DNA of 64,000 nucleotides from Volvox africanus (lineage: Eukaryota > Chlorophyta > Chlorophyceae > Chlamydomonadales > Volvocaceae), in assembly GCA_030268105.1 (NCBI GenBank), contig BSDZ01000004.1, forward strand, positions 6,860,001 to 6,924,000, in the 5' to 3' direction. A program made the translations under genes and the position numbers. Within the stretch, counting starts at the first letter, position 1. Each line of letters opens with the position of its first letter. Positions 17,778 through 48,687 of this stretch are shown here, piece after piece. The notes beneath the pieces are model-generated. The model saw only the letters and a program-made list of their open reading frames with translations, ran no database searches and had not been told where the DNA came from.

Positions 17778-20700
17778 ATGGTAAGCATAAGTAGCAGGAA
17801 TGTAGATTTGGGTTATTGGTAAATCATGTTTTTATTGTCGGACTCAACGATTATGACCTGCGACTGCGGCAGGAGGAAACATCTCCCAAGCGCAAATTAA
17901 GGCAAAGTCATCATCGTCCAGACAGAGTTGATGTCGTCGCAGCAAGGCGTTCATTAGTTGATGCAGCACAGGAGGTCGGTCCATTGACAACTATGTGTGT
18001 TCAACTGCGGGACACGATGTCAGAAAAGAAATAAAACCTCTTACTTCAGGATATTTTATCCCTGCACGCAGGCTTCCCGTGAAGAAGACACCGCACTGAA
18101 GGCCGAAGGCCTGCACATCGGGAGCAGTGATGAAAAAGTTGCTTCGTATCGTGGAGTTGGGCTGGGTCTCTACTTCAAACTACTTCACTGGTGAGTTCAA
18201 ATGGTATCAAGATGCACTGGTACGGGGTGGGCTGACTAAAACCGTGACATGGCACGGGCACTTGAGTCAGGGTGATGATAATAATGGAACGGGATAGGAT
18301 AATGAATTTGGGCGTAAGATAAGTGGTTTTTGGCTTGATGCTTGATGAGTTAACTCAGAAGAAGCCCTTCACGCATGAACCCTTATCGCGATTATGCGTG
18401 CTCCATTATCCTCCGGATCCCTTCTGGCACGGCCCTTGGCGCCGTTCGTGGTTCGCAGGCTGTTTTGGATGATGGTCTGGATGATGTTGTGCTCGGTAAG
18501 CTCAGTTGTCGTGGGAGGGGCGGGCGAGTCTCGGCCCTCCTTACATGGCCAACTACGGAAGATGATTGCGCCTCATTGACCAGCGCATGTCAAAGCCAGC
18601 GCCTGTCACAATCAGAGGGTATGCTCACGTATGGGTGAGTCCTCCGACCACCGTTACAGCTAAAGCTAATGGAGGGCGCTGCGTGAGTTTTTACCGGTTT
18701 GGACATGGGGGAAGACAAGCGACTTACCCGTAGCCTGTACTGGGGGAAATCCTAGATGTAATGGCTGGATATCCTGGATAAACCATCAAATGCCTCAAGC
18801 CTCTCCACTACCGACTTATGTTCAGGTGCCGTACATTATTACCATCAACACTTCCGTCTTCACTGACTACGCACACCGGTATGATCACAACTACGGCGTC
18901 AAGGTGTACGACAGTTTCGAGCTGGCTTCCTTCACCTTTGCAGCAATCGTGGACGATAAGAAGGACAATGGCACGTTGCAGTACATGAACACCAACATTG
19001 CGGATGCGTGGAAAGGACCCATGAGGAAGGGCGTCTTCCTGACTTGTGAGTCGTACGCAGCGAGTTCTATTGCCGTGCCGAGTGAGATGAGCAAACCATT
19101 GGCAGCTCGTTGTTGTCGTACCGGAGTCCTTTCACACAAACATGCAATGCGGGATTGATGCCACCTGGATTGTGATGAGGTCGGTCCTGTGCACCCTGAG
19201 CCCTAACCCCCGGCCCCTACTTATTTCCATCGCTTCTTAGGGATTTCCCTCGCTGATGCGGGCGCCACGGCGGTGCTTTCGTGCGTGGTGCTGGTGCTCT
19301 TCGTACTGGTAAGTAGGAAGGCGAAGGGAAAGTGACTTACTGAGTCAAGTTGGCAGAGGGAGGAAATGGTGATGAGTTACTGAGAAGGCAGTTAGGATGG
19401 CTGCCATTTTAAACGGATCCGCGGTGGCAGTACGTGCCTGATTATAAGCATGGGTAACCATAGCTGGATGAAACTGCGAATTTTGTTTGGCGCATCCTGG
19501 GCGAACCAGAACGGCAACTGGGTCATTGGCGCGGCTAATCGGCAGCCGCATATGGTGTTTCATGTGGTGCATTTCAGCACGTTCTGCTCGTGTACTTTAC
19601 GTGGGTCAACACCGTTTGAGTTGCTGCCTTCTCCGCATGTTCGTTGGTGTTTTGGAATACTGTTGTTTCTTGAGTGCAGGTGCGGCGATGGTTGGAAAAG
19701 GTGGACTACAAGACCCGTGAGGTGGCTGACTACGCGGTCATCGTTGGCGGGTTGCCACCCTACGTCACTGCTACGGAGGTACGACACATAGACACATGAA
19801 CACCATGTGTGTACTATGAATACACACGCATGTATTTTTACCGAGAGCACCATGGAAGGTGGAAGAGTAGGATGAAAGCGAGGTGACTGTAAACCCTCTT
19901 CGGTGTGCTCCTTCACATCGGACGCACATGCTGTTTGTCCCGCAGGTTGGCGATTACTTTGAACGGTGCTTTTCCAAGGATCCCAAGAGAGACAAGGTAA
20001 AAGGCGAAGAAACGACAAACGCAAATAAAACCCATATACGCAGAGGACGGTTGGGGCATCGTGCGCTCTCGTAGCTTGGGTGGGAGGAGTGGATCCACCC
20101 AATTTGCAGCTGATATCATAGGATTTGGTATCGATCACCGAAAACTCGATGTGAGCTTTTAACCTAAACCCCGCCTGCGTCCCTGGTGCCCACGCATCCT
20201 CTGTGCTGCCCACCAAAAGAACAAGAGTTGGCATGACGTGTCCATAACACAATCATGCTATTGACAAACGATCGGCAGGTCATGGATGTGGTCCTCATAA
20301 GCGGCTTCTCCACCGTTATCAGAGCGTGCAAGGAGGCGCACCGGAACGAGCAGCTGAAGGTATGGTCATGCGCTATGGCAAGATGATGGATGTTATATTC
20401 GATAGAACGACGTGCAATATCAGCACGCGAAATGCCATACACGTGTCATGCCATGTGATTCAGGGGCTGCACCAAAGCGTGAGGAAGGCCAACAGCTCAA
20501 AACACAACTGGAACGCCGTGTGACTCCATATTCGACGCCTCAGGCCATCATTTGCGTTTCATATTGTCGGCATACTGAGTTCAGTTTTTCCAAAAGCCTG
20601 CCCATTTTGCCACATGTTCACATATCGGGCCAAACCAGTTATAGTTTTACAACCAGATCTTTAGGTCAGCACGGGCCATTGCAACCTGGGTATACCTGAG

Positions 20701-23700
20701 GTATATACTTCTTCGCCGCTTTCGATGTTTTATATAACCATTCGTTCAAGTGCGTTTACCTGACTACTTCCCCGTGCGTAGCGGTTCGTCGCTGGCATGG
20801 AGGCCAAGGTGAGCGCTGCGCATGAGTTGCCGCCGATAACGGAGGCGGATATTCCAGCTGCACCTTCCAGCATTGCTGAGTCCATGGTGGAGAAGGCAGG
20901 GACGCCAGTGACACCAGTGCCGAAACAGACGACACCAAAGACAACGCCGTCCTCGCCCGTGCCCGCCAACGGCGGCCCCAGGACCATTAGCCTCACAGCA
21001 ATTGCTACTGCCACCACGCCCGTCTCCCCACCGCCGCTGTCACCGAAGCCGGTGCCAACACCAGCGCCACCGGCATCGGTCACTTCCATTCATGACCCGG
21101 AGTCTGGCGCGTGTGAGTTTCCTCATACAACTTCACATGGTGGTAATATAATGCTGGCTTGGGCTAGCAAAGGAGGGAACCCAGGATTGTTACTGGTCGC
21201 TGGTGATGAATCACACCTGGGTGACACCTCTCGTTTCATCTCCCTGTCGTAGCCTTCCTTGCGCCCTATATTGAAAGCCTCTATCCGAATCGCCATCCGA
21301 TGTCGACCCCGCAACGCAGCTTATTCCCTTACAACACATGTACGTCACGCTGTATTGCAGTGAAAAAGTGTTCCTCGTTGACCCGCGACATGCGAAGCGA
21401 GATGGCGAAGGTGATGGCCAAAATTCGGGAGCAGGAGGACCTGCTGTTGTCACGTCTTACTGGCAAGAGGAAGCTCCGCAGCAACGCAGTGAGTCGTGTT
21501 AAAATGAAGCTAGGGCTTATCACGACATGGATATGTGGCAGTTGTCTAGGCGAAATGTATGTCTGAGGACTGTCGAGCCCTATGCTGCTGCCTGCGCCGT
21601 ATTGCCACCGCTGAGGCGGGTATGGGCCTACCGAGGCTTACCTTGACACCCGGCGCTGCTGTGATGAAAGAAAGAAGAAGTGCCGCTGTCCCGGATAATC
21701 CCATCCCGCAATAAGAACTCGCTTCCTCACCTCTACCCGGTCGCCTTCGCAGGCCATCGTGACCTTCAACACGGAGCAGATGCGGGCGGAGGTGTGCAAG
21801 ATGATGCCCTCGGGTGGGTGCTAGGTGGATGAATGTGGCGTGCTGCTGAGGTTGGGGTAGGCTTGGGGGTGGGCAGGCAGGTTTGGATAGGTGTAGTATA
21901 GTGGGGCCGAGTTGTGAATCCTGAATAAGGACCTCTTGGGGCATGCAATCTGCGTAGCATAGCATGGCTTTGAGCTTATTGAAAAGAGGCTACCAGGAGA
22001 CAGGCGACTGTGGCATGTGCATGTAACCGCACCACCAGTGCTGTCCAGTGCTCAATAGTGTTAATGGGTAGCATTAATCCAGTCGTCCACCCGCATACCT
22101 CACACTCTTCAACCCGGCCCGGCATGCGGCCCGGCCCGTTGCTTTTCCGCCAGGCTGGTGGGCCTCTCTGTTCATGCGCCGCGACCTGCGCATGTCCCAC
22201 GGTGGGCGGCTGTGGAAGGTATGGGTTCGGCGCGCTGCGGCTCCGGACGACTACCGCTTCGAGAACATGGCCACACGCATCCGGACGAACATCCTCATCC
22301 AGGTGCGTGCTGGGGGGATTTCGAGGAGCGCCGTGTACTCAGCGACTTAAGATAACGTTAAAATAAAATAACTCTCTGATTTCGTTCCGCACTGTCCGCA
22401 GCTCTTCACCGGCTTCATCATGTTTATCTTTGTGGTCATCTGCGCTGCATTCATTACTTGGCTCTCCGCTGCCTCCAACAAGGAGGCCCGCGTCATCAAG
22501 TGGGACATGACGGAGCTGCGGGCGGCCATTGGGTGCGTGGGGAATAGGGAAGGGCTGTTTGGTAGTTGAGCGACTTTATGGGGCGACTTTATCGCGAACG
22601 GCATGGGAGCAGTTGCTTCGTTTGGCAGGTAAATGGGTGGGATGGATCATCGACAGCACAAGCACAGGGTGGGACAAAAAGGGGTTTATGGGAATCGGTA
22701 GGTCTTGGTGATATTGGGGAGTAATGGGGTGCCGCGCCTTTAGGAGGACGGGTTGAATTGACTTCAAAGCAATAGCGCAGAAAAGAAGATTTCGGGATGC
22801 TTACGGTGTACTCGGCACACTATGCAGCCAGTGTTGTGTAGCCTCATTAAAGACAATCCACCGCTTCCTCCTGACCCAGGATCGGCATGGCGAAGATTGG
22901 CGCCGCCTCTACCAGCAATACAGCCCCGGACCCGGTGCGTGCGGGCGTGCAGGCGGGTCTGGGCCAACGGTCCATGGGAGGGACATTGCTGCATAGGCGC
23001 AAGCATGCGTCTTGGGGACGACGGTCCTAGTCCCTCCTAGGACTAGCTTCAGCTAGGACTAGCCAATCTATTCTTTGCTTGTCGTCTTTGAGTGATTCTG
23101 CTGTACTTTCCATATTAATTATGCTTTCAGGCCTCGTACGACGCGTTTTGTGCCAGCTCCATGGCCAGCTGCATTGCCCATGTGGGCGAAGTCTTCCCTG
23201 ACGCCGCCATCAACATGACTTACGGGTACGGGCTGGGCGCTGCAGTGCATTCTATTGTAGAATTTGGCAGGCTTAGGAGATTAGCATCGGGGGTTTGAGT
23301 ATCAAGTTTCACTTCGAGCTTTCTGAACCTATCCATTGGTTTTCCAGGCCTGCACCGAAACATTGCTCTGATGCAACCGAGCTGGACAGAATAATGTTTC
23401 CCCCCTGATTTTACCGGCACGTATCACAGCGTACCATATCCAGTATGGAATGCGATGACCACGGGTAGGTTGTGTGTCTTACTTTCCGACATGGCAAGTT
23501 ACAGACGCATCTCCGGTCCTTCCCCTCCCCCTCATCCCCAGTGCGGAGTGGTCGTTTCCCAGTGCAACCGTCCGTCTTTTGAACGAGCGACCCATCCGCC
23601 AGGACTTGACCAAATGCGCTGAGGTGAGCAAGCTGCTGAGTTATAATCATGCCGCATGCACTCTCACCCTCCATCTACCTCAAGCAGCATTGCGCCCTGA

Positions 23701-26700
23701 GATCTTATCCACATTTAATGTTTCGTGCACGACTGGAGGATGGAACCATGGTTACTTCTCGAAGCATTTCTCATAGCTTCTGTTCTCCGCCAATCCATTA
23801 TAACGTTTCGCCCCGACGCGCTCTCGTGATGACCAATTGTCCATCCCGCCTTTTCCATACCCGTAGAGCGTCTCGTGCCCAGCCTCGTACTGCATCCCTT
23901 GCTACTGCCTGGGCTTGAGTTCCGTACCCACGGATGACGCAACCCCCGAGTTTTTGGCACACGTCAAGGATACATGCTCGACTTACTGGCGACCCTTGGA
24001 CCTCAGGTGAGTCTAGAGTCTGGCTTGAATGGGGTCGAAATGCTGATCCACCACCACCGCCAACTGCCTGGTCTAAGATTGGGTTAGGATTGACCTTCCA
24101 TTTGATAGGGCAGGGCAGGACAGGAGCGGCGTGGAGAGAGTTTGCACGCGAGTCAGGTGAAATAGTGCCTTTAAAAGATTAAATGTAAATATCTACTATA
24201 CGTTGCCGTACACTATGTTTCCTGTCTGCATGTACGACACCAGAGCGGCTTGAGGTGTTTGCACTTATGAAAAGACAATCTGCCCCAAAACCACGTAAAA
24301 AAACCCTTGCACAACGGTATCACCCGACTCTCCAGGCGCCAGGGCATCATGATTGCCATTTCCGTTGTCATCGCCGTCATCAACTCACTGCTCACCACCG
24401 TTCTGCGCGTCCTCAAGTTCAACGTAGAGAAACACTGGACCACCACTGACACAGAGCTGAGGTAGCGTGTGCCGGATGTAGGGCTGTAGGGCTGCCTTTT
24501 GTACGACTAACCGTGTAGATGCATGCGTAGAAATGTGCACTACCTGCTTTCAAAATAGGAACAACTCAAACACGGATAATTGGAGCTCGGTTATTAGGAC
24601 GGGAAGATGGAAGGGCTTATCGCCATTACCGTTGACGTTGTAATTCTGCTTGCTTATGTATCCCTTGTGCCGAATTGCTTCCCTACAGCTACGCGATGTG
24701 GTCGTACCTGGTCAAGTTGATAAACTCGGTTGCTGTCCTGCTTATCGTCAACTGTTCCACATTGGGCAACCTGCAGAAGAGGGCTCTGGAGCATGTGAGA
24801 GAGCGGACGGGACTGGGATGGACACAGAACCGCGGGTGTATGTGTGTATGTGTGAATCCTGTGAAGGTTCCGCGACTTGTAGGGGGCTACATGCAGCTCA
24901 GGGAGCTCAGGGTCATGCTGCTCAGGATCTCCATTAGGTCGCTGTCCTCGGAGGGATGCAATGCCCTCTCAGTCAGCAGGAAATGTGTCTCTCACATTTT
25001 CCAAATACGTTTCTCATGTCTTCATTTTTATCGTTATGCTACAGGAATCCCGCTGGATGCAGCGTCTCGTCCTGGACGGGCTGTTCGACGACTTCACACC
25101 CAACTGGTAGGATAGGCCTTCATTAGTAATGCCGTTGGGATTGCTTGTCGCAGCTATCATGATGAGATTGAGGCGTGTTATTGTAGAGGTGTCTTTGGGA
25201 ACATCGGAAGCCGGTTGAGATATTTGGCGCCGTCGAATGCGCAACCAGAAATGATTACAGCGGATTAACACCAGACCGTCTCTGCATAACGGCGCTCTGC
25301 AGGTACGCCTCGATCGGTTTCTCGGTCTTGATCCTGATGATGATCAACGTGGCGGGCCCGCTGATCCGTTCCTTCGTGGACATTGCGGTCAAGTGGGTCA
25401 TGCGCACCCGACTGCTGTATGTCCACATGGGCAAGCTGGCCGCGCCGGAGGACTACAACGCCGCGTTCCGCAATCGCCAGGTAAGTCAACGTCGTTTTGG
25501 ATCCGTGAACGTGAAACTCTGGAGGACTGAAGAGGTCTAGGGGTGTGGAGGCGTCCCGTTTTTACACCCGCAGGATTTCTGTTCAATTCAGAATTTCATC
25601 TGCCCTCTTATGGACTCATGCTCCACACACCATCATGCAATCCGCCATGGAACCCTCCCCTTCCCAACGTGTTTCCTCTCTCTCTCTCCCCCCTTCCTCG
25701 CCCCCCACCAGTTCACCCTCGAGGAGCGCATTTCGGATGTGTTGTTCAATTTGACCCTGGCGCTGCTGTTCGGCAGCGGCATGCCCCTCTGCTACCTCAT
25801 CGCTGCTGTCTACGTGCTGGTGGCGATCTGGTGGGATCGACTCAACCTGCTCGCATGGCGCCAGCCCGCGCAGAGATACCATACAAACCTACCATTGGCA
25901 ATTATATGTGAGTAGCATAACATAACATAGCGGAACGGAACGTTGACGAGGTTTATGTAGGCAGAGAGGTTTCATCGAGAGGTTTCATGTGGCGGCGGGG
26001 ATTATAAATAGAGCTGCGGCTTGAGTCCGTGAGTCGTGCCCTCTCCCGTATTTGCATCCCGGTTGCCGTACCCGCCCCGCTCCTCACACACACACACTCA
26101 CGCAAATACACCCTCAACCGCTTGCTTGTCTGTCTGTCACTCAGACCTGCTTCCGGTACTGTTGATGGGCCACTGCGCGTTCGGTCTCTGGATGCACACG
26201 TACTTCAAGGCCGAGCTCAGCAGCATGGACATCATGGCAGCAGCCAATGCGGAGCTGGTGAACCCGGTAAGGCAAGAGTGAGGAAAATGAGAGGAGGTGA
26301 CGAGCAAGCCTTAGTAAATAAAGCACTCCATTGCCTCACCTTCCCTTCTGTCCTTAAAAGTTACACCTCACCCCACCCCTCTCTTAAATCCCTCCAGGGC
26401 ATCTCCTCGCTGTCCCACAGCTCCTTGAGTCGCCGCATCACGCAGCCCAACGGTCTTCCGCTGCTGATCTGGTTCCTGGTTTTGGGGGCGTTGCTTATCT
26501 TTGGCAGGTGGGGATCACGGAGAGGAACAGAAGGGGAATGGGTAGCCGTGGACACAATAGTGCCAATCGGGTGCATCACATCGTAAACGTTGCCACTAGC
26601 CAGCCATTTATTAAAAATCGATATCTTACATGCTTTCATGTGGCGTTGATGCCAGGTGGATCCTGTGGGTAGTGTTCAAGATTTTCGGCGGTTCGTGCGC

Positions 26701-28729
26701 TCGCCTGACGACCTCCATGAGGTCAAGGCTCGGCTCAAGGGATGGTAACGGCCATTCAGGTGGGTCGCCTGTGGCTTTCTGCCAAGATCCAGAATCTCGG
26801 GATGGCGAGGTTTGCAGGAAGCTGCTGCACATGATAAGAACGGCCAAAGAATGAGGATAGGCGGCCACAGGATCCAGCTCTTGGCAGTCGCTGTACTCAG
26901 CAGGAGCGATTAACTTTATTCGCTTATGTGCTCCGTGGTTGGCCATGGTAGCGGAAGGGTCCACTTAGCCTGCGTCAACCGCCGCCAATTCGCTTCCGGT
27001 GTGTATTGTCCTGGAGCCTGTGCGAACTAATTCAACTACCGACTGCCGTTAATGACAGATGTTTCGTACGAGGAGGCTCTATCGACAACGAAGGTTGCCA
27101 AGCTGCTCCGTGGTCCTCGCACGTACCGCATCTCCCACCTCACCAACTACAAGGCTTTCCTCTCCACTGGAGTCGCGGCCCGTCTGTGGAGTCTGGTGCA
27201 GGGCGACAGGCGCTTCACCAGGCTGGTGAGTCGCGGAGTGTATCAGGAAGTCGCCCAAGGTGGCATCAGAGCCCGGTAATGTAAAAGAAGGTAGAGCCAC
27301 TGGCAAGAGTCGGCAACGGTCACAGGAACCCAAGGGCGCTGTGCACTTGTCAAACACTATAAAGAGAATGCTAATGGTATCATGATGGTATGATGTGTTA
27401 GACTTCATAATTACGGCGTTTGCCAGTTGGTGCTCGTCCCATCCTCTTTTTAAAGGAGGTTCGAAGCGGCGAGTGGCGTCAATTGTTTTAACCTTCATCC
27501 TTGGAAGCGGCGATGCAATAAAATTAGGACTGACGATTAAACCAACTTTGTTTCCGCCCAACCTGCAGACCACCTTCCGGGTGCACGTGGAAATGGAGGT
27601 GCATGACGGCCACCAGGTTCGCACCGAGGAGCGCGAGGTGGAAATGTTTGACGTTGCAGACGTTGCTATCAAGTCGCTGCCCAATGCCGCTGCAGCGCTT
27701 GCCGCTGCCAATGCTGCCGCCACCCGTGACGACTTCCCGCTGACACCTCAGCTGCCGCTCCCGCCGTCTCGGGGACTGGCACAACCCACGGGGGATGCCC
27801 CGCGGCACTACTTGTCACCACCATCGTCGGCAGACACACTACATCCACTACCGCCAACGGATTCTGCCCTGCTGGGCCTGGTGCCGTCGGCCGCGCTGCA
27901 AGCAGCAACACTACAGCATATCGCGACGCTACAGGCCAATACCGGCGCATTGGTAAAGCGCGTCTCCCTGCGGGCAATGCCCGAGGGGCTGTTGGTGCCA
28001 GGCAACGGTAGTTTAAAAATGGTAGCACCACCAGAGCCGCTACCGCCGTTCGAATTAGATCTACAGCCTGTCGTGGTAAGGTCGCTGGCGAGTATTCGGC
28101 TGTTGCCAGTGCGGGATCGTGCCGATGGTGAGGCATCGTTGATTACTGCCGCCGGATCAGAGCCAGCCATTCGAATGCGGCGGTCGTCATCGGCGGCTTC
28201 GGCTTCTAGCAGCCATGCTTCCGTTGTGACGACCCAATCGGCGCCACCAGCGTGTCCGACGGGTGGCGGCGTGAACAATGGTGGTGACCGTGACGGGTCC
28301 CCCACGGAGATCGCAGTGGAGAACAAGGATTCCACCGACGGTGCCGTAGCGGAGGCGGCTGTTGTCGTGCAGGCCGAGGCCGTTGTGCTGGCGGAGGCGG
28401 TGGCGGTGGCGGCCATCGGGTCCAAGGGTGCTGTCAAGCGCAAGTCGGGTGGCGGCAGCGGCATCCCAAAAGCCAAGTCTACTGCTCCCGTCTCCAGCAA
28501 GGACGTTGGCCCTCGGTCGAGGGCCACATTCAAGTACAAGGCAGTGTCATTGGAGCAGCTATCGAAGCAGACCAAGGCATCCTCGGTCGCCGAATGCCTT
28601 ACACAGCTCCCGCCGCTGTCACCCCCGTTACAGTTGCAGCAGCAGCGATCTGGGACCGGTGATCTCGTGGTGGCGGCATCCGTTGCCTCTGCCCCTGACA
28701 CTGTGACGGACAGCAGTCTGAAATTGTGA
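17778..28729 (+). CDS. OSCA/TMEM63-like polytopic channel protein, copy A
   Basis: Exons: 17778-17780, 17873-17974, 18072-18190, 18459-18495, 18826-19045, 19241-19308, 19680-19778, 19946-19996, 20279-20359, 20782-21112, 21253-21488, 21753-21813, 22154-22302, 22402-22532, 22880-22934, 23131-23225, 23542-23623, 23867-24006, 24336-24461, 24689-24794, 25045-25106, 25303-25480, 25712-25907, 26145-26266, 26398-26507, 26656-26744, 27059-27225, 27569-28729. All phases join, giving 1458 aa. TM1 (about 70-90) and TM2 (about 162-184) precede a cytosolic domain that opens with [11 protein letters not shown] (about 200-210) and continues [10 protein letters not shown] (about 450), the RRM-like layout of the OSCA/TMEM63/CSC1 family. 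TM3 lies at about 522-545, followed by a Cys-rich loop (SYCIPCYCLG) and then further hydrophobic helices. These include [39 protein letters not shown] and [17 protein letters not shown]. The tail (about 1073-1458) is disordered and Ala/Pro/Val-rich. Family members are mechano- or osmosensitive cation channels or scramblases. The fold assignment is by pattern only, and anoctamin-like relatives are the alternative. The initiator ATG is the whole coding part of exon 1. Confidence 0.82.
21663..23635. repeat. Near-identical duplicated tract (copy A side)
   Basis: About 1973 bases that recur at 38120-40092 with a constant offset of 16457 and no indel. I noticed one mismatch (T versus C just before the 3' splice site at 21752). 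It spans five whole exons and their introns, and ends inside an intron just after a shared donor GTGAGCAAGCTG. Confidence 0.95.
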
Positions 28730-29280
28730 AGCCACCTAGGCATACGGCTGCAGTGTTGGTGAACCCACTACCTACCAATGCCTTCTGTGCCTGTGCCATT
28801 CGTGTAGAGGTATGTCGCCGATTGAAATGGCTTACGGCATGAAGTCAAGGGAAGTTTGTTTGATTTTCTTTCCCGTGTGATGATGTTGCCTTTTTTAGCT
28901 TCATCTTGCCTAAACGACGACGATCTGCACAATGTGTTGTACATAGGTCATATATGTACATGTACCACGTTGTACCACTCCTTAGCGGGCGTTTGATAAG
29001 CTCCGGTAACTCTACTGACAGCAATAGCAATTAGTCCTTAGTTGACCTAGCACCATCAGGGCTTGGCGTCCCCAGCATCCCTGCTGTTAGCGACCTTGAG
29101 CGTAAATTTTGGTGGCTGCTGCTACCTATTCCGTGGTAATGCCGCTGCCTTTTGTTGGCTGGTGAAGCAGATGTGCGCCTCCCATCCGTACTGTTAGTGA
29201 AAAAATAGCCCCATATCTCTGACATTTCGTGCACACAGACCATGGTTCAAGTGACGTTCGATTAACATCATTGCCTATTA

Positions 29281-29285
29281 TGTAA
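29281..29285 (+). terminator. Candidate TGTAA poly(A) signal for copy A
   Basis: First TGTAA after the copy A stop codon at 28729, about 550 bases downstream, which fits a usual volvocine 3' UTR. Confidence 0.4.
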
Positions 29286-31307
29286 TGGTTTCCTCCTTCA
29301 GTTGCCTAATTTTGTGGCCTTATTTAGTACATTTCTGCATTAGTTGTCGCTCACGAATATATAGCCATTTCTGTTACAAATAAGCATGCGCTTAAGGACC
29401 TTGAGCGAACAACCTAGGCCAAAAGAACAAAATATCAAGAAGAACTGAGTCTCGCCTTTAGGGAAATGCCTTATACATCAGCATAACTAAGTCAGTTGCA
29501 CCCATCTCTCCCACCGGCTAACTGAAAAGGACGTGCCTAGGGAAGGGGAAACAAGCGGTGTCTGTAGACTGCTGACTACGCAGGTCATGGTAATACCGCG
29601 TCAAATACTCATATTCCGCCATGCTAGGCTGCCCACCTTAGTCACATGAGTTGTGAGGGCGTTGACCTGCTGTTACAGATGTAGCAGCAAGGTTGTCTGT
29701 TGGTCTGGCGCCGCATGCTGTGCCATGGAGACGCCTCCAGGGCCGTGGCTCCAGGGCCCATCTGCCCTCCCAGGGCGATACAAACCAGCAAGTGGGTTGA
29801 TACAAGCCGAGCTGCCAGAAGGCATCCCTAGCCCGAGCATGTCCATGGCAAGGGTGCCTTTGACGACGCCCAGTAGCACCAATTCCAGGTCGACCACGAT
29901 TCTAGGAGAAGGAGTAGAGAGTCAAACTCACTCCACCCGATGGGTCCTGCTGATAAGCTGAAAGCACGGCGGTTTATTAACAGCACGCCAGATGTTGCGG
30001 GATCTGCTTCTGTGTTCACCGCGTGTCCAAACAAGATGAAATTGAAAGCAATGGCACGGAAATAACTACAGCGCTGAGGACACGGGCTGAGGTAAGAAAG
30101 CTGTACGACTGCCTCAACCAGGGCCATATTACACCCAACAACCTGGCTTCCCAATGCAAGCTTGAATTGCTTTACAGCTGCTGGTGATCCTTACTCTGTA
30201 CTAACCATCTGAACGGCTCCTCCAATCTGTGTGAACAACCAGTTGCCTCAGGTCACTATATATTGCATCAGCCATTCAACAACTTAACTGTTTACCGTTG
30301 CCTGTGTAGGTCCTGAGACCCTTGCAACTTACACCCGGACAATGCGAGTCACCAGATTAGGTCCACCGCAAATTGCCAGGTGCTTCTGGTTCTCCAGCCT
30401 GAAGAGCTCCAACCCCCTTCCTAAGGATAACGTATTTTCCAAACCTGGAAATGAAGAAAACGTTGCCTGAGCGTCCCACTTGGAAGAAGTTACTCTGAAA
30501 GATGACGTTGACGTTGGCTGGACCGGCACGGGCTTGTCGTTGTTGTCAACGAAGGCAATTTGTGAAAATACCTCAACCAGCCGTGAAATCTTAGCCTGAA
30601 CCATCTAAGTCGATTTGAACATTGTGGATGTCGTCGGTTCTGTGGCCGATATCTGTCAAAAAATGCCGATGCAGCCGCACCCTGCGTGTAAACCTGCAAG
30701 CACAATGCAGATAAGTAGCCCGGTTGCCGCGTGTCCGACTGGTGAGCTGCACCGTGCCTTAAGTCTATTAAAAGGAAACAACCAAAGTCTAAAGCAAGCA
30801 ACGGATTGTTACAATACAGCTGTCGAGGTATGAAACCTCGCCAAAGATATACTCACAGAACTAAGTGCCGTACCAAGGCGGGTGCACTGATCAGGCAAAT
30901 AGTTAGTGCCTCCAGGCCAGAAGACCAAACGCCAGTCTTACTCCACGAATCCTACGAACACAAAGGGTTTCCTAACAGCCTAATCAGGCAAGACCTATGT
31001 CTTACTGAGAATACCAGCGGTAGGAAGTTAGGCCGTAACTGGACAATATTCCCTTTGATCCCCTTGTGCACGTGGCAGGGAAACAAGCAGTCCATGTATT
31101 TATTAGCATAATTTTAAGCTATTATCCTAGCAGGATCGGTTTCATTTAGTTCAAAACAGTGTACCGGCAAGTCACCGGGAAGTGCGCCTAGCGAAACCCA
31201 AGCAAGCTCGCTACATCTAAAGGTCCTTTAGACCTAGCTTACCGGCGCGCAGAACACAAATACTGGATATTGCGTCTTCCGCTCTGCAGCACTATTGATT
31301 GCGGCAG

Positions 31308-31486
31308 CAAAGGAAAGTCAGCGTCGGCACCTTCCAAATTGGAGACCGCTTGGCAGCTGGCAGATCGAGAAATGATACCGACCACCAACGCTTCGCGACT
31401 GCTGAGGCATGGATTGTCCGGGTGATAACCGAATTATATGCAAGAATTGAGGAAAACTGTGTTGACGGGCGCGTTTCTAGAACATG
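31308..31486 (+). other. Exon-like fragment with argininosuccinate-lyase-type motif
   Basis: Open frame after a possible 3' splice site (TTGCGGCAG), reading QIGDRLAAGRSRNDTDHQRF and then a helix-like AEAWIVRVITELYARIEEN. The G-[RK]-x-x-[AT]-G-R-S-R-N-D pattern is the substrate-binding signature of argininosuccinate lyase in the fumarase/aspartase superfamily. I could not find the other family motifs (such as the GSSxMPxKxN loop or the catalytic THxQxAQ) nearby, so this is either a lone exon of a gene I could not assemble, a relic, or a chance match. The TGA just upstream at 31296-31298 rules out a simple extension. Confidence 0.3.
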
Positions 31487-33745
31487 AGCCCCCTCGGAGC
31501 GCGTGGTCCAGACCAGTGAACGAGCGGAAATCGCATACAAACTTATTCAAAATTATTTCTGCACGCAAGCACAATGACGAGGTAATGTGGCTAGAAACAC
31601 AGTATACGTGATGTGATACTACAAAATAGCTTCATGTGCTCGTACGGCCCGAACGAGTCAGGAGGCATTTGAGGCACGAGGAGGCTCAAAGGACCGTTAT
31701 AACTGAACAAGTAAGAGAAAACAAAACATATTGTGTTTCTGTTCTATGAAGCAACAAAGAAAGTTTATTCTATCTTTGTCAGCTATGTTTCGTTGAGTAT
31801 GCGCACATATATCATGCAGCGCTATGGCCAGCACGCGCTTGTTCACCACGCCCATGACAGCTAGAATATCCTTTTCAAGAATCATGCCGCTACCTCCCGT
31901 CTTATGCTGTCGCATGCACATGGTGTTCATCTTCGACTTTTTACCAGGGTCGCAAACGGGGCATTTACGATCCAGGCGTGCCCTGCCATTCGGATGGAAT
32001 CTTGATAGCCTACCAACACTGCCTGAAGTGGATCGAACTCTTATGCATGGTGCTTCAGGTGACACCGTTCGCCCATCCAGGAATTGTTACGTGATCCTTG
32101 CTGGCCTCCATCCGATGGCTTGACAATGCAGGGCAGGTAGGAGGGTTGACACCGTTCTAATTCCTGTTTTTTCTACTTGTAATTCCCATTGGCCTGCATA
32201 GTTTAGCTGAACTCATGGGCAACGTGTAGTATGCGGGGTCCCCGTGATGATGCTCGCCGTACAAGATAAGGCCGCTAATGACACAGTTGCTATCGGAGCC
32301 TCACATGGGACACATGCCTGACCAGGCGCTGTCAGCCAAGACCACGAACATGTTCGCAAGTCGCATCGCAGGCTGAAATGATGACCTATGGGTCCCTGTT
32401 AGCTTTGTGGTTTTACGCGCTGTCAGTTTCCTTGTACTAGGGCCCGTATATGCATCTCTCCTTTCGAGTTCCCCTCAAATTACCGATCAAATTACAAACT
32501 TCCTGTTTGTAAGCACTTCCGCTTTTGAGGGACTTCCGATGTCGTTATCTTAGGACAGCGATATGAGTTTGGTCATGTTTGGCCGGCGCCCTATGAAAGG
32601 ATGGCGGCTTGGCAGGGCTGCAGTCAGTGAGCTCCAGGTACTGGACCCGGGCATCAATTTCAACCGTGAACCTGTCATCACTTGTTTGGGTCTCGTAGGC
32701 ATTCACTGCGGTCATGTAAGGAAAGTTGCAAGAGCTTGCACTGTGCAGCCCGCCTGCACTGAGCTGCCAGGAGGTCAGCTGCTGCCCTGCCAGGAGGTCA
32801 GCTTTTTTAATTCAAGCAATTGAATCCACGGATTCCGTCCTGAGTTATGATTCAAGCATGCAAATCAAGTGCCGTGATCTGTTTGGGATCTTGGGTACCG
32901 TCACGACGATGGGGCTGCCCCCACGGCACGTACCTGAACCGTTCATTATGTTGCTTGGTAATAGCCGAAATTTGAAGCATTTCAAGCAGGGGAGTGGGTC
33001 TGAAGAAAGTATTTACGGGTAAGTAAAAGTTAACTTTGTTCAGATCTTCAGGATGTGCTGTTAGGCTTTAGGCCAGGTACAGGAGTAACCAGGGCTCAGG
33101 TGGGATGTACGGCAAGGGGTAGGTGGGGCTGATATCGCATCGGCTCCAAAATAATTTTCTGGACTAAATTCTTAAAGGGGCGGTTAATTTATTTTGAGCC
33201 AAACCTTATTAAGCGGAGGCTATCTTATAGTGCTTTTCAAGCGGCGCGTGGCAACGTCCCTTACATCGTACTGTACCGTACCGCGGGGGCTAGGTAAATC
33301 ATTCCAAGATTGCCTGGTAAATAAAAAAATAATTCAAGTTGAGTAGCATTTTATTTTAGTCTCTTGCTGCAACTAAATGTATGGTTTCTGCCGTGCGCCC
33401 GTGCGGTCGCCCGGTCGGGGCTGTGTCGTGGGCCATAACGCATGATAGTCTATAGTTCACATACGGCGACGGTACAAGTACTCATCTGAAGAGGAATTTT
33501 CGGTAAATCATTATCTTCATACTATGGCCCTTGGTACGATGAACATCGCCACTTGCATTTTTTGAGGTGCGACTGAGTATCTTTTGATGGTCAATCCCTA
33601 AATGTAGCCTTATTCATTACCAATTTTAATCTTACGAGCTCAATCCACGCATAAAAAACAAGTTCAGACTACCCCTCGTTTCCAACCCTAGCTGGCTTCC
33701 TCTGCCCTGGTGCTTTCTTGGCACAAAGGACCTGGGGCCGAAATA

Positions 33746-36700
33746 ATGGTAAGATCTTCATGTTTTCAAATGATGTTATCTTCGCTCGCGGCCTGTGCAT
33801 TTCGCAATTACCCGGCTGGCGTGCCGTAACTGTGGACTATGGCAGAAGCGAACGGAGCCAAAGGTGGCATCAAACCCCAATCCAAGATTCCCAGTTGAAG
33901 CTGATACAGGTGCAGCTAGGCGCTTTCTGGTTGAAGCCGCAAAGCAGGTCGGCCATCTGTATATTCACGCGACCGGCTTTGCAAGAAGTACAAACTAATC
34001 GCAGTATAACCTGCTACTTACCTCTACAACTATCTGGTCAGGCTGCCCGTGAACGGGACGCGGCACTAAAAGCTGAGCAGAGCGAAAATCTGCACATCGG
34101 CGCCAGCAACGAGAAGATTGCATCTTATCGAGGCATTGGGTTGGGCATCTACTTCAAACTCCTAGAATGGTAAGCCAACCACGTTGCCAAGGGCAGCCCA
34201 GTCGCGCCATCCGTTCGCCATGCTTGCGTCAGCCGCGCCGGTGGGCACGCCTGGCACATGGCTACGCTGCATTGACGGGCACGAAAGGCAATCCGCCCGC
34301 ACTTCGCAAGTTGATAGCCTAACCACGGAAGAAACAAGAGGTTGTTGCTGGGCTGGACTACGCAATTCGGTTGCCAAGTCGGTGATCGATCAAGGTGTAC
34401 GGTTGCGCGCCAAGCTTCTCCCGTACGGTGTGCGTGGGGGGAAGACTCGCGATTGAATCTCGATTGTCTTTCGAAAACAAAACCTCTTCAGAGGAGAAAC
34501 ACGGCCCATGGCATAATAAAAGTAATAGAAATTAAATAGTATTATTTAATAATAATACTTAATAATATTAATTATTAATAATAAAAAAGAATAATATGAT
34601 AATAATATAATTAATAATAAATAATGATGATAATAAATAATAAATATACTATTATTGTTATACATTATCTATATTTATTACAATGATTTTCATTAAAATG
34701 TACCGTGTTGTGTAGTGTGGACTCTTGGGGAGATTGTGACCACGAATGTGACCAAGGATGATTAAGTTACAAGGTCACCAGAGTTATTGTGTAGGATTCA
34801 GGGTTTGAAGGTTGACGGCGCATCATGCATTACAAATACTGTCTTCGCGTTTACGTGAGCAAAACCCGCCCAACATGGGGTTCACGCCATATTTCCTGGA
34901 TCGTAGGCTGTTCTGGATGATGATGTGGATGAACTTGTGTTCGGTAAGTAAGCTTTTGCCGTGCTGTTGTAATAGCCGTGGCTTCTCATCTTTCACCCGC
35001 CATTGCATGTCGTCCAGGTGCCGTACATTATTACCATCAACACTTCCGTCTTCACTGACTACGCACACCGGTATGATCACAACTACGGCGTCAAGGTGTA
35101 CGATAGTTTCGAGCTTGCTTCCTTCACCTTTGCAGCAATCGTGGACGATAAGAAGGACAATGGCACGTTGGAGTACATGAACACCGAAATTGGGAAGTCA
35201 TGGAAAGGACCCATGAGGAAGGGCATCTTCCTGACTTGTGAGTCGTAACCAGGGAGCAGTATTGGGTGGTTTACCCGGTGAGGTATCCGAAGTACCGAAG
35301 TACGACATCGAGATCAACTTGGCCGTGATGGGCGCTAGGCCCCGGCTGGGCCGATTATTTAAGATCCGAGATCTTGGGAGTCCTAGCCCCCGAATTCCAG
35401 TCGTACCGGCCTGAATCGTTAGAAGATCACGCGCCAAAGCGTTAGGGCTACACCTGGATGAGTAACTAACATAACCGCATGTAAACCATATCCCCCTCCC
35501 CCTTCCCCCCGCCATTCCAGGGATTGCCCTGGTTGATATGGGGTCCACGGTGATTCTGTCGTGCCTGGTGTTCGTACTGTCCGTACGGGTAGGTACGATG
35601 ATATATGTGCACAGCTGGGGGGGGCGAAGGGGGTCAGTGGTCAACGGATGGTTGTGAGGGTAAGCTGTAAAATCAGCTCAGCCTGATAGTTCACAACAAG
35701 ACGTGATATACGACGGACTTTCTCCTTGTGTGCGTGTGTGTGTATTGATCGCCATATTACCCCGCCCCGGTCCTGCGTGCTTTCAAGTTTCGTTGCTGGT
35801 TGTTGGTGGACTGGTTGGATTTTTTGATTGGTTGCAGATTCGGAGGTGGTGGGTGCGGCAGAAACGTGAAACACGTGAGGTGGCTGACTACGCAGTCATC
35901 GTTGGCGGGTTGCCCCCCTACATCATTGCAACGGAGGTATGACACATAGACACATGAACCCGTACATGCGTAAGCACATGTGCATGTGCTTGTTCAGCGA
36001 AAGACGTACGACATACACTTGTACGGGTGTTATGTCTCATGACAATTACATGCATACACACATGCATTTGATGTTCTGCTGCGTATCATATATGCTTATG
36101 AATGAAATTTTGTACGATATGTGTACAACATTTCATGTATTTTACAATCTACCTTATCCCCCAGCACCAACACACACACACCGTACCCCAATTCACCCAC
36201 AACGTCTCTTCCCCCTCCCCTCCTCTTGCGGGAGAGACAGGTGGCGGCGTATTTCGAACGGCACTTCTCCAGAACCGCCGAAAAGGACAAGGTGCTGTTT
36301 GGGGGGGGGGTAGTGGGGGTGCTGTTGAGGTGTTGGTGTTGGTAGTGGGGGTGCTGTTGGTGGTGATGGAGGGCAGAACCCAATGGTGCAATACCGCATG
36401 ATGCCGGGATGCGAATTCCCTGGTAGTACCAGAGCTGCGAGCACCCTAGTACGGCAGGCATGTGCGGTACTACAAATAGAGGTCAAGTGCTCCGTTTCGT
36501 TGCTCACTCACACAAGGTATAACTTCTCAGCATGAAGGTACACCCCTCCCCCTCTCCTTCAAGGTGCTACTGTATCCACAACCGCCACAACTGACTGCAG
36601 GTCATGGAAGTGCAACTGGTTCTCAACTACGACAAAGTTTTCAAGGCGTGCAAGGTGGTGCACTGCAACGAACTGTACATGGTACGACAGTGCAACTGTT

Positions 36701-39700
36701 TATATATACGATGATGATGTTCTTTAGTTATGGCCCACGAGCTGTGCCAGTTGACTGCGCTCGCTTTCCGACGCTGAGAATTCCGTCACCCATGTTCTAT
36801 CCTGCTCTATCCTGCAGCCTCCTGGATGTATCCGGCTGGATTCCGTACGGGAGAGATCCTGAACGGGAAATGTTGGATTTTGTTGGATTCCGCAGGATCT
36901 GTGAGGCTACCCTGACCCCGGGCTCCCACCTTCCTCCCTTCGCAGAACCGCTTAGCTGAACTCGGAGACAACACGAAGGGTGTGGCCTTAGCAACACCGC
37001 CACAAGCGATAGTGAGTATCCAAACAGCCGCCGCCGCCACCGCCGCCGCTACATCTGCAGCAGCAGCGCTGACCCCGTCAGCGTCGGTGACATTAGAGAT
37101 GCCGCCGCTGAAGTCGGCGGCGTGCCCAGCAGTAGCCGAGAAGTCATGTGAGTCGTCGTACAACTTTGCAATCGGTACGACAGCCGGCCACGACCTTGAT
37201 TCTTTTTCTTCGCCTTCCTTTCATCCTATTTAAGTTTCCCCGACGGTCGGCATGTACACGTGTGTTCGCGTGTGTGTTTTGGCCGTACGTAGCAGGGCCT
37301 CTTCCCCGACCCCAGATCCCCTGCCATGCAGCCTCTCAGTTCTTGGCACACCTGTTTCTTCGCCGCGACGAATATCTTCACGTTTTGCCCACAAATGCGT
37401 CGTACACGGCTCTTATGTACGACAGGCAGTAGCTCTACAGGCTTGAAGCAGCCCCCGGGAAAGGCACCGGAAGTCATCATTCGGGAGCAGGAGCAGTTTG
37501 TACGGGATCTCGTGCAAGGAAACAAACTACGCTGCCGCGCGGTGCGGGTCGCTGTGAAGCTGTGGGTGAATGTGCGGATATGGGCATTCAAGAAGTATGC
37601 ATTTGCGTGCAATTAACGTTCAGTGGGTACATGACCATTCAGGGTATGTCATCGATAATGACATAGTGGGTTGGGCGGAATGAAACCCAACAGGATCCAC
37701 CCCTTCGGGTATTCCCTGTGGAAATGTGAGCGATGCATGCATCAGGGAATGAGAAGAAAGAAAGAAGGAATACCGCAGAGGCGGAGGAGAGGAAGAGGAA
37801 GAGGGAGAGGGAGAGGGAGAGGGAGAGGGAGAGGGAGAGGGAGAGGGAGAGGGAGAGGGAGAGGGAGAGGGAGAGGGAGAGGGAGAGGGAGAGGGAGAGG
37901 GAGAGGGAGAGGGAGAGGGAGAGGGAGAGGGAGAGGGAGAGGGAGAGGGAGAGGGAGAGGGAGAGGGAGAGGGAGAGGGAGAGGGAGAGGGAGAGGGAGA
38001 GGGAGAGGGAGAGGGAGAGGGAGAGGGAGAGGGAGAGGGAGAGGGAGAGGGAGAGGGAGAGGGAGAGGGAGAGGGAGAGGGAGAGGGAGAGGGAGAGGGA
38101 GAGGGAGAGGGAGAGCTTTGATGAAAGAAAGAAGAAGTGCCGCTGTCCCGGATAATCCCATCCCGCAATAAGAACTCGCTTCCTCACCTCTACCCGGTCG
38201 CCTCCGCAGGCCATCGTGACCTTCAACACGGAGCAGATGCGGGCGGAGGTGTGCAAGATGATGCCCTCGGGTGGGTGCTAGGTGGATGAATGTGGCGTGC
38301 TGCTGAGGTTGGGGTAGGCTTGGGGGTGGGCAGGCAGGTTTGGATAGGTGTAGTATAGTGGGGCCGAGTTGTGAATCCTGAATAAGGACCTCTTGGGGCA
38401 TGCAATCTGCGTAGCATAGCATGGCTTTGAGCTTATTGAAAAGAGGCTACCAGGAGACAGGCGACTGTGGCATGTGCATGTAACCGCACCACCAGTGCTG
38501 TCCAGTGCTCAATAGTGTTAATGGGTAGCATTAATCCAGTCGTCCACCCGCATACCTCACACTCTTCAACCCGGCCCGGCATGCGGCCCGGCCCGTTGCT
38601 TTTCCGCCAGGCTGGTGGGCCTCTCTGTTCATGCGCCGCGACCTGCGCATGTCCCACGGTGGGCGGCTGTGGAAGGTATGGGTTCGGCGCGCTGCGGCTC
38701 CGGACGACTACCGCTTCGAGAACATGGCCACACGCATCCGGACGAACATCCTCATCCAGGTGCGTGCTGGGGGGATTTCGAGGAGCGCCGTGTACTCAGC
38801 GACTTAAGATAACGTTAAAATAAAATAACTCTCTGATTTCGTTCCGCACTGTCCGCAGCTCTTCACCGGCTTCATCATGTTTATCTTTGTGGTCATCTGC
38901 GCTGCATTCATTACTTGGCTCTCCGCTGCCTCCAACAAGGAGGCCCGCGTCATCAAGTGGGACATGACGGAGCTGCGGGCGGCCATTGGGTGCGTGGGGA
39001 ATAGGGAAGGGCTGTTTGGTAGTTGAGCGACTTTATGGGGCGACTTTATCGCGAACGGCATGGGAGCAGTTGCTTCGTTTGGCAGGTAAATGGGTGGGAT
39101 GGATCATCGACAGCACAAGCACAGGGTGGGACAAAAAGGGGTTTATGGGAATCGGTAGGTCTTGGTGATATTGGGGAGTAATGGGGTGCCGCGCCTTTAG
39201 GAGGACGGGTTGAATTGACTTCAAAGCAATAGCGCAGAAAAGAAGATTTCGGGATGCTTACGGTGTACTCGGCACACTATGCAGCCAGTGTTGTGTAGCC
39301 TCATTAAAGACAATCCACCGCTTCCTCCTGACCCAGGATCGGCATGGCGAAGATTGGCGCCGCCTCTACCAGCAATACAGCCCCGGACCCGGTGCGTGCG
39401 GGCGTGCAGGCGGGTCTGGGCCAACGGTCCATGGGAGGGACATTGCTGCATAGGCGCAAGCATGCGTCTTGGGGACGACGGTCCTAGTCCCTCCTAGGAC
39501 TAGCTTCAGCTAGGACTAGCCAATCTATTCTTTGCTTGTCGTCTTTGAGTGATTCTGCTGTACTTTCCATATTAATTATGCTTTCAGGCCTCGTACGACG
39601 CGTTTTGTGCCAGCTCCATGGCCAGCTGCATTGCCCATGTGGGCGAAGTCTTCCCTGACGCCGCCATCAACATGACTTACGGGTACGGGCTGGGCGCTGC

Positions 39701-42700
39701 AGTGCATTCTATTGTAGAATTTGGCAGGCTTAGGAGATTAGCATCGGGGGTTTGAGTATCAAGTTTCACTTCGAGCTTTCTGAACCTATCCATTGGTTTT
39801 CCAGGCCTGCACCGAAACATTGCTCTGATGCAACCGAGCTGGACAGAATAATGTTTCCCCCCTGATTTTACCGGCACGTATCACAGCGTACCATATCCAG
39901 TATGGAATGCGATGACCACGGGTAGGTTGTGTGTCTTACTTTCCGACATGGCAAGTTACAGACGCATCTCCGGTCCTTCCCCTCCCCCTCATCCCCAGTG
40001 CGGAGTGGTCGTTTCCCAGTGCAACCGTCCGTCTTTTGAACGAGCGACCCATCCGCCAGGACTTGACCAAATGCGCTGAGGTGAGCAAGCTGTAACCTGT
40101 CGTATTTAAATCGTACGGCAACCTTCAGATAATTTCACTAGAAGTAAGGTTCCACTGAACTGAACCTGCAGGGCGTCGGATGCTCGGCCTCGTACTGCAT
40201 GCCGTGCTACTGTCTGGGTCTGAGTGCGGTACCCACGGAGGAGCCAACCCCGGAGTTTTTGGCGCACACAGAGTTTGCTTGCTCACGATACTGGAATGTT
40301 CTGGACCCGCGGTGCGACTAACGCCCTACAGGGAGGGGCTGAAGGGGCCTTGGGGGGGCCTTAAGCCATTACCTTAAAGCGGAGCGCCCAACGCACGTGC
40401 GTACGTATTTGTGTGTAAATTGCACTAGGCTGTACGGCATTCACATTTTAATTTCGCAATACCCTCCTTTTTCCATCATTCACCGCGGCCCACTCGTACG
40501 GCTAGGCGGTACGGCATTCTTGTTGCGATCTCTCTGGTCATCCGAGTTATCAACTCCCTGCTGGCGTACTTCTTGCGTCTTTTTAAATTCCACGTGGAGA
40601 GGCACTGGACCATCACGGATACGGAACTGAGGTGCGATGTCGTACATGCTGGAGGCCGTGACGGGGGCTGGAGGCCGCAAACGGCCATTTGCACTTTGTT
40701 TGCATGTGTGTGTGTGTGTATGTGTGGCCTACATGAGGGTTAGGACAAATAACGGACCTGGGGGGTACTGAGGGACCACGGCCCAATGTACACCGGGGGG
40801 GGGAATCATCAGTCCGTAACTCCCATGCTGTTTACATTGGTAAAATTGATATGAGTACACGAGTACATCTACGAATATATTCATACGACTGTACAACACT
40901 TTCACGTACTGCTCCCCTGCAGCTACGCGATTTGGTCGTACCTCGTCCAGCTAGTTAACACCGTGGTCGTGTTACTGGTCGTGAACTGCTCTTCGCTCCG
41001 GAATCTGCAAAAGAGAGCTCTCGAGCAGGTAAGACGGGTAATTCACACACGCATATTCACTGAACGGGACCTAAACTAAGCTTTACTTAATCGACTGATA
41101 TTTATTATAACTCGCGAGGCAGGGCGAGACTCTGCGATGAGACTCCAGGACGCTTCAGGCAGGGAGGAGAGGGGAGGGACAACCGGACTCGGTCATGGCT
41201 ACGCGCATGGCCCATGGGACTGCGCGGACGGACGGCGTATTCGACCATTGGGGCTCCAGGGAAGGGAAGAGGCACGGGTGGGCTTTCTCAGACGATGAAG
41301 AGATTGAAATTTTAGGGGTTTGGGATTTAGGGGTTTAGGGGTTCGTAACCTTCTCGATGTCGTTGCCATATCAAACAACTAATCGCTGCCTAAAAAGTCA
41401 CGAAGCCGGGTTTTGCCTCCCCTTTTTCACCTCCACCCATTAGGCCCCTCCCCGTCCGCTCCCCCTATTGCTCATCCTTCCAAACCTCGCTCACACCAAA
41501 TGCTCTACAGGAGCCGCCCTGGTTGCAGAAGCTCGTCCTGGACGGTTTGTTCAACGACTTCACCCCGGAATGGTGCGTAGGTGTGGGCACCTGCTTACAC
41601 CGTATACCTGCTGTCGTGCGTTCGCCAAGAGTAAGAGATGCTCTTCCGCGACCGTCGCACGCGCGGACTTTCTAATCTTGCCGTCAAAAATACATATACA
41701 TGAAAGTGGTATAGAAAATATGGATGAAGGTATTTTGACGGCAAGATTAGGAAATTGTAAAATGTGAGCATGTAAATAAATAAATTATACATACTATTGC
41801 AATTATTATATATATATATACATGCTCACATTTTACAATTTTACATGCATGTACAACTGAATATCGTTTTTTGGTTACGTCGTGCTATGTCGTTGCAGGT
41901 ACGCGTCCATTGGTGTCTCCATTATAATCCTCATGATGGTCAATGTGGCGGGTCCGATTCTGAGATCTCTGGAAAACTGGATCTCAAAATTAATTTGGCA
42001 GATCTGGCTGCTGTACGGTCACCACTGCCGCTCAAGTACCAAGCCGCCGACTATGGAGGTCTATCAGGAGGCTTTCGGCAAGAGCCAGGTGCTCAATGCC
42101 GATTGGCAGTTGGCTGGGTCACCGTTGACCGAAGTTTTCCTATTTTCTATGCTACATACTCACGTAACCAGGGGATTCTGGAGACTCAAAGATCAGAATT
42201 TAACATTGTACGCACTAATTGTCAAAAATGAACATGGGTAACGGCTTGTAAGAATGAGGTAATCGCCTAAAAGTACTGCACCCGCTAATTTCTATAGTAA
42301 AAGGCGAAAGAGATAGATGTTTTGTGGGCAGTACAACTCATGGACACTTTACACGATGCGGTTAGGTGTAGCCCGCGAATTCATGGGTTGCGCTGCCTTC
42401 TGTGCGGCGATGGTGGGTCCTTGACGCATTCCTCCACAGTGCCACTTTCCAAATGGCGAGTTCTCTTACGCTCTGGACCTTACCCCCTTACATCTGATAA
42501 CTCCGTACTGTTAACTAATGAATGCCGAAATTAACTTACGTTTCAGAATTACGTTGTTGTTATACTTTGTTCTTCCCCTTCTTTTGTTCTTCCCCTCCCC
42601 TCCATTTGTTCCCTTTTTCCAACGTGTTTCCTCTCTCTCTCTCCTCCCTTCCTCGCCCCCCACCAGTTCACCCTCGAGGAGCGCATTTCGGATGTGTTGT

Positions 42701-45315: not shown

Positions 45316-48687
<3,372 letters not shown>

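What the first reader, a model, noticed from the sequence alone, without database searches (positions are those of the whole stretch)
21663..40092. 1.97 kb of two tandem genes is virtually identical, introns included
21663-23635 and 38120-40092 match at a constant offset of 16457 with no indel and one mismatch noticed, although the flanking exons of the two genes differ clearly in protein sequence and their flanking introns are unrelated. Introns that old would have diverged, so this points to very recent gene conversion between tandem channel genes. The other possibility is an assembly that copied one sequence into both places.
Basis: seen in the sequence. Interest (0 to 1): 0.75.

Follow-up and report, generated by a model that had tools for sequence, protein, structure and literature searches.

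The report
Gene conversion between tandem Volvox channels
A two-kilobase piece of one Volvox membrane-channel gene, introns included, appears to have been copied recently over its tandem neighbour; proteins of related Volvox still show the neighbour's own version of the middle of that piece, so this is a well-polarised case of a known process (gene conversion), not a new kind of system.

Summary
Confirmed. 21662-23635 and 38119-40092 match base for base, with no indel and one mismatch (21747, intron), and are the only two matches in the 141-Mb assembly. The genes (A, B) are tandem OSCA/TMEM63-like channels by predicted fold. Outside the tracts exons differ strongly (dS 0.85-1.5) and introns give no BLAST match; inside, dS is 0 over about 132 synonymous sites.

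Relatives show the unconverted state: B proteins of another V. africanus genome ('JP') and of V. reticuliferus keep a B-type El-En segment (JP A:B 47/92 residues). In the window B carries the A type (A:B 92/92; B to JP A 87/92; B to JP B 48/92). No B-type copy was found in the assembly. So A was copied onto B in this lineage.

Five shorter, imperfect tracts lie in the same pair, and exons Ej, Ek, Ep encode identical residues within each of three genomes, so conversion recurs. A 330-bp GGAGAG array in B ends 3 bases before the tract; its role is unproven. Assembly copying is unlikely but raw reads were not available, and two near-perfect palindromes elsewhere in this assembly are unexplained. 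Known process, new case.

The parts
17873..28729 (+). Gene A (donor): 27 modelled exons, OSCA/TMEM63-like channel; start codon not resolved
   Evidence: Exon-joined frame with only a terminal stop; relatives P0001 (Vafri_8662) and P0003 (Vretifemale_12126)
33846..45315 (+). Gene B (recipient): 26 modelled exons, tandem paralog, no stop inside; start codon and 3' end not resolved
   Evidence: relatives P0004 (Vafri_8662) and P0008 (Vretifemale_12125)
21662..23635 (+). Tract T2, donor copy: end of intron Ei-Ej, exons Ej, Ek, El, Em, En, Ep with their introns, and 12 bp of the next intron
38119..40092 (+). Tract T2, recipient copy in gene B
   Evidence: A-type El-En where relatives' B proteins are B-type
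22402..23225 (+). Exons El, Em, En of gene A with introns: the stretch that polarises the event (partner 38859-39682)
   Evidence: Window B matches JP A 87/92 and JP B 48/92
37786..38115 (+). (GGAGAG)55 polypurine array in a gene B intron; three bases (38116-38118) separate it from the tract
37750..37776 (+). 27-bp stretch left of the array resembling the tract's left edge at 21660-21686 (22 of 27)
   Evidence: Score reached by 2 of 2000 first-order resamples of B's intron; coordinates checked
18820..19055 (+). Tract T1 (exon Ec); partner 35012-35247; 95% identical
19716..19801 (+). Short tract in exon Ee and 23 bp of the next intron; partner 35874-35959; about 92% identical
25661..26246 (+). 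Tract T3 (end of an intron, Ev, the next intron, most of Ew); partner 42616-43446, where a (CATAA)46 array is expanded
26364..26666 (+). Tract T4 (Ex, the whole following intron and the first 11 nt of A's exon Ey); partner 44040-44345
44335..44345 (+). First 11 nt of gene A's exon Ey stranded inside gene B's intron; B's own modelled Ey begins at 44524
   Evidence: the JP B protein carries a B-type Ey
27105..27330 (+). Tract T5 (later part of Ez and start of the next intron); partner 45195-45420, 97% identical

Best explanation
Interlocus (ectopic) gene conversion. In the lineage of this strain, after it separated from the V. africanus lineage called JP here (or from a variant still mixed at that split), about 1.97 kb of gene A was copied over the corresponding part of gene B, replacing B's exons Ej-Ep and their introns. 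Shown: two near-identical copies in the assembly, old paralogs, A-to-B direction, a lineage-specific event, and homogenisation of the same exons in three genomes at protein level. Inferred mechanism: a break in gene B, perhaps at or near the polypurine array, was repaired by strand invasion into gene A at exons made near-identical by earlier conversions (Ej-Ek, Ep), with DNA synthesis running through interior introns and exons that had little homology left. The left end lies in non-homologous intron sequence beside the array, as expected if that end was closed by end joining or template switching. Earlier converted islands could thus help the next tract to start.
For: Two copies only, constant offset, one mismatch. 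dS A-B 0.85 (Ea, Eb, Ed-Eg) and 1.52 (Eq-Eu) against 0 in Ej-Ep over about 132 synonymous sites. El-En: A=B 92/92 in the window, 47/92 in JP, 49/92 in V. reticuliferus; window B to JP A 87/92, to JP B 48/92. FastTree: window B is sister to window A for El-En but groups with the other B genes for Eq-Eu and for Ea, Eb, Ed-Eg, Ei (supports not printed). At Ej, Ek, Ep 4 of 4 differing residues between window and JP are shared by A and B; in Ea, Eb, Ed-Ei, Eq-Eu and Ey, of 247 variable sites (482 compared), 1 follows the genome (in Ee, which holds a short tract), 162 follow the gene, 84 neither (Fisher on 4:0 against 1:162, p 1.6e-7). A's exon Ey start lies stranded in B's intron, showing A to B for T4. 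The B-type El-En peptide finds only the two A-type places in the assembly.
Against: No raw reads. Relatives were compared as predicted proteins only, so their introns and synonymous sites are unseen. The repair steps are inferred from tract ends alone. The association of arrays and tract edges is post hoc: of 10 recipient edges of five tracts (the Ee tract left out), 1 lies within 10 bp of an array (p 0.11) and 2 within 60 bp (p 0.01), against a 264-kb neighbourhood, not a random sample. Homogenisation by genome is less clear at Ev-Ex: between window and JP 1 site follows the genome, 2 the gene, 9 neither, and only the V. reticuliferus pair is sister there. Two large near-perfect palindromes in this assembly leave some doubt about it.
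Confidence: 0.9

Rival explanations
1. Assembly or polishing artefact: one sequence was written into both places.
For: If the strain is rightly inferred, the assembly is PacBio with Canu and then Pilon with short reads (PMC10291315 passages); polishing can erase a few differences inside a near-identical repeat. Two large palindromes, a 5852-bp one at 97002-108900 in window coordinates and one seen as paired exons of P0016's relative on C10, could be artefacts of such data. Odds raised slightly (0.05 to 0.06) when the second one turned up.
Against: 27.7 Gb in 1.48 M subreads is a mean of about 18.7 kb (my arithmetic), far longer than the 2-kb tract; polishing cannot turn unlike introns and El-En exons that differ at about half their residues in JP into identity; no B-type copy was found; fold-back reads make inverted, not direct, copies; the same genes hold older, imperfect tracts with differing array lengths.
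Confidence: 0.06
2. Unequal crossing over or a recent segmental duplication rather than conversion.
For: The genes are tandem and in the same orientation, which allows unequal exchange.
Against: The tract is bounded on both sides by exons that group with the other B genes, and JP and V. reticuliferus also have one A and one B protein. Two crossovers 2 kb apart would be needed, which is conversion in effect.
Confidence: 0.03
3. The identical sequence is old and kept by selection (a conserved intronic element or protein constraint).
For: Ej, Ek and Ep are also identical between A and B in JP and V. reticuliferus proteins.
Against: Introns and synonymous sites are identical too; El-En of window B differs from JP B at 44 of 92 residues but from window A at none; the 4 differences at Ej, Ek, Ep between window and JP are shared by each genome's two genes.
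Confidence: 0.01

Closest known systems
Interlocus gene conversion and concerted evolution of tandem paralogs (e.g. the human gamma-globin pair, whose conversion boundary lies at a simple repeat in an intron; recalled, not found in searches)
   Same: Tandem paralogs, sharply bounded near-identity including introns, donor-recipient polarity, a simple-sequence array beside one edge.
   Different: The paralogs here are old (dS 0.85-1.5), interior introns had probably lost homology, and some exons are homogenised in each of three genomes.
Gene conversion at the Chlamydomonas mating locus (PMC3757049, passages seen)
   Same: Volvocine algae; directional tracts found by comparing haplotypes.
   Different: Exchange between mating-type haplotypes in short tracts; here between two tandem genes. 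[quoted passage not shown]
OSCA/TMEM63 (CSC1-like) mechanosensitive channels
   Different: About 12% identity to solved members; no Pfam family above its cut-off in P0001 or P0004; channel activity untested.

Membership tests
Interlocus gene conversion | Two non-allelic paralogs share a tract of near-identity bounded by diverged sequence on both sides | tested here: met
Interlocus gene conversion | Recipient groups with donor inside the tract and with its own orthologs outside | tested here: met
   (protein level)
Interlocus gene conversion | Gene number and order unchanged (non-reciprocal transfer) | tested here: inconclusive
   Two tandem genes here; in JP one A and one B protein whose longest contigs have the same length, in V. 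reticuliferus adjacent locus numbers; their DNA was not seen
Interlocus gene conversion | Both copies physically present in the cell's genome | not testable with these tools
   No raw reads held
Repair by strand invasion with end joining at a heterologous end | One tract end in homologous sequence, the other in non-homologous sequence | tested here: inconclusive
   Right end 12 bp beyond exon Ep; left end in non-homologous intron beside the array, but a 22/27 match lies across the array
OSCA/TMEM63 channel family | OSCA/TMEM63 fold over the membrane core | tested here: met
OSCA/TMEM63 channel family | Pfam OSCA/CSC1 domains | tested here: inconclusive
   None at E 1e-3 in P0001, P0004, P0002, P0005 nor at E 1 in P0001, P0004; PF14703 below its cut-off in P0013, P0016, P0018. 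The window's own joined proteins were not scanned.
OSCA/TMEM63 channel family | Stretch- or osmotically gated ion conduction | not testable with these tools
   No functional data

The most novel reading that the evidence does not exclude
A conversion ratchet: exons homogenised earlier act as homology arms that let later tracts run across introns and exons that have lost homology, so identity spreads island by island along two old paralogs, with a break-prone polypurine array in the recipient setting the direction (A onto B) and the left end.
Probability: 0.3. Interest if true: 0.62.

Novelty: new member of a known kind. Interest (0 to 1): 0.5.

Why it matters
Gene trees of tandem families mislead when exons are overwritten. 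Here a converted and an unconverted state exist in genomes under one species name, so direction, tract ends and recurrence can be read, and the role of a polypurine array can be tested. The replaced part covers a long predicted helix (468-504 in the JP B model) and the segment after it; it removed B's own version there, so the two channels may have become more alike in function.

Tried and rejected
Shared stop: a first gene model seemed to hold a stop inside the tract in both copies (exon 'Eo', 23348-23464); relatives join MTYG directly to AEWSF, so it is intron and the idea was dropped. Truncated gene B: a stop after GRWIL near 44345 first looked like a broken C terminus; it is the stranded start of A's exon in a B intron, and B's own exon Ey lies at 44524. 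Leftover B-type exons: none beyond the two A-type places in 264 kb or the assembly (Em alone is too short to be found). Many-copy repeat: not supported, two matches. Chlamydomonas incerta pair as a parallel case: P0005 against P0012 gives 8-29 of 40 except two windows, 37 and 32; not followed up. Pfam on 6 single ORFs of the window gave only an ABC transporter domain. Other members in the genome: a search with P0016 finds a further locus on C10 besides genes A and B; a search with P0001 did not complete. P0016 is named VaNZ11_004035, but its pieces match the assembly at 69-99% (exon edges run into introns), so this is no clean proof of the strain. How often such tracts occur genome-wide is unknown; in the 264 kb around the pair two repeats of 1 kb or more at 99% or more were found, this tract and a palindrome.

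Literature, judged from titles and starts of abstracts: gene conversion, Volvox, paralog: 27 papers, 15 shown; ectopic gene conversion, Chlamydomonas: 3; 29, 15 shown; 0; 6; 0; Volvox africanus, gene conversion: 5; TMEM63, OSCA, gene conversion: 0. No title or abstract start shown reports this case; full texts were not read.

Full report
What is there. At offset 16457 the two stretches are identical from 21662 to 23635 except for 21747; a whole-assembly search gives these two places and no other. The single difference lies in an intron four bases before the acceptor AG of exon Ej. Self-BLAST shows two collinear genes in the same orientation with further, imperfect tracts: 18820-19055 (exon Ec 209/220), 19716-19801 (part of Ee and 23 bp of intron, about 92%), 25661-26246 (Ev 193/196, Ew 102/107), 26364-26666 (Ex 108/110) and 27105-27330 (97%). 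Other modelled exons are 64-85% identical over aligned columns; their introns differ in length and give no match at E 1e-5.

Source. The held assembly has 140,993,249 bases in 126 contigs. A published assembly of Volvox africanus strain 1101-NZ-11 (Thailand, NIES-4468) has 141.0 Mbp in 129 gap-free contigs, from PacBio at about 197x (1.48 M subreads, 27.7 Gb), Canu, and Pilon with Illumina at 166-fold (PMC10291315, passages seen). I infer that the window is from this strain (TH). A protein named VaNZ11 (P0016) matches the assembly at 69-99% per piece, which neither proves nor excludes it. 'JP' below means the genome of the Vafri_8662 proteins; that this is the Japanese strain of that paper is inferred (the word Vafri does not occur in its main text).

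Direction and time. Exon by exon (11 proteins aligned, the table reports the TH, JP, V. reticuliferus and Pleodorina rows), exons El-En give A:B identity 92/92 in the window, 47/92 in JP and 49/92 in V. reticuliferus. Window B matches JP A at 87/92 and JP B at 48/92. So B in this genome received A's version; JP and V. reticuliferus did not. Trees agree: for El-En window B is sister to window A, for Eq-Eu and for Ea, Eb, Ed-Eg, Ei it groups with the other B genes (FastTree, supports not printed). The B-type peptide finds only the two A-type places, at 56-64% identity, in the whole assembly. dS between A and B is 0.85 in Ea, Eb, Ed-Eg, 1.52 in Eq-Eu, 0 in Ej-Ep. One difference in 1973 bases is about 250,000 generations at an assumed 1e-9 per site per generation (rate recalled; 95% range about 6,000 to 1.4 million); polishing could hide a few differences.

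Recurrence. Ej, Ek and Ep encode identical residues (20, 50, 27) in A and B of each of the three genomes. All 4 window-JP differences there are shared by A and B. In Ea, Eb, Ed-Ei, Eq-Eu and Ey, of 482 sites compared 1 follows the genome (in Ee, which holds a short tract), 162 follow the gene, 84 neither, 235 do not vary (Fisher p 1.6e-7 on 4:0 against 1:162). Ev-Ex are near-identical between A and B in each genome, but the pattern by site is less clean: window against JP 1 by genome, 2 by gene, 9 neither; with V. reticuliferus 6 by genome, 2 by gene; in the tree only the V. reticuliferus pair is sister. So the same exons have been homogenised more than once, and the 2-kb tract is the newest event, plausibly widening an older island.

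Tract ends. The right end lies 12 bp past exon Ep. The left end lies in an intron; in B three bases separate it from a 330-bp GGAGAG array. Left of the array B has a 27-bp stretch resembling the tract's left edge (37750-37776 against 21660-21686, 22/27; reached by 2 of 2000 first-order resamples of B's intron). Eleven short-period arrays of 150 bp or more occur in 264 kb, three of them in gene B introns. Of 10 recipient edges of five tracts (the Ee tract left out) two lie within 60 bp of an array (binomial p 0.01), one within 10 bp (p 0.11); this was tested after seeing the arrays. A paper on yeast and human sequences is titled as finding an association of polypurine tracts with meiotic recombination hot spots (PMC1543642, passages seen). 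Tract T4 carried the first 11 nt of A's exon Ey into a B intron (44335-44345), about 180 bp before B's own Ey, so that end was not set by exon homology.

Mechanism. Shown: replacement, direction, lineage, recurrence at protein level. Inferred: break in B, invasion of A at already homogenised exons, synthesis through unlike sequence, closing of the left end without homology. The array as break site is a lead, not a result.

Doubts. No reads were available. This assembly holds at least two large near-perfect inverted repeats: 5852-bp arms in the neighbourhood and, on C10, exons of a family member in mirror pairs around about 3,893,266. They may be real or artefacts; a direct copy such as this tract is not what fold-back reads make. 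I set the artefact odds at 0.06.

Verdict. The process is known; the case is unusually well polarised.

Noticed in passing
window coordinates 97002-102853 and 103049-108900 (outside the window; L016:3002-8853, L016:9049 to L017:4900): A 5852-bp inverted repeat with one mismatch and about 196 bp between the arms; two ORFs of 150 aa or more in one arm. Either a recent inverted duplication or a fold-back artefact of long-read assembly.
   Followed up: partly
G000 C10:3885346-3901186: Exons of a further OSCA-like family member appear in mirror pairs, + and -, around about 3,893,266 with equal identities: a second large palindrome in this assembly.
   Followed up: no
42871-43099 and 43501-43694: Two pentamer arrays, (CATAA)46 and (ATATA)39, in gene B introns; gene A has about 3 CATAA units at the first place.
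   Followed up: partly
44331-44347: A decoy splice acceptor with 11 nt of gene A exon, running into an in-frame TAG, inside gene B's intron; its use would truncate the protein.
   Followed up: partly
17860-17975: The JP gene A protein starts MEETSPK; the window reads CAG GAG GAA at that place, so the start codon may lie in an upstream exon.
   Followed up: no
62677-63024: Start of an ABC transporter domain (PF00005, E 2e-8).
   Followed up: no
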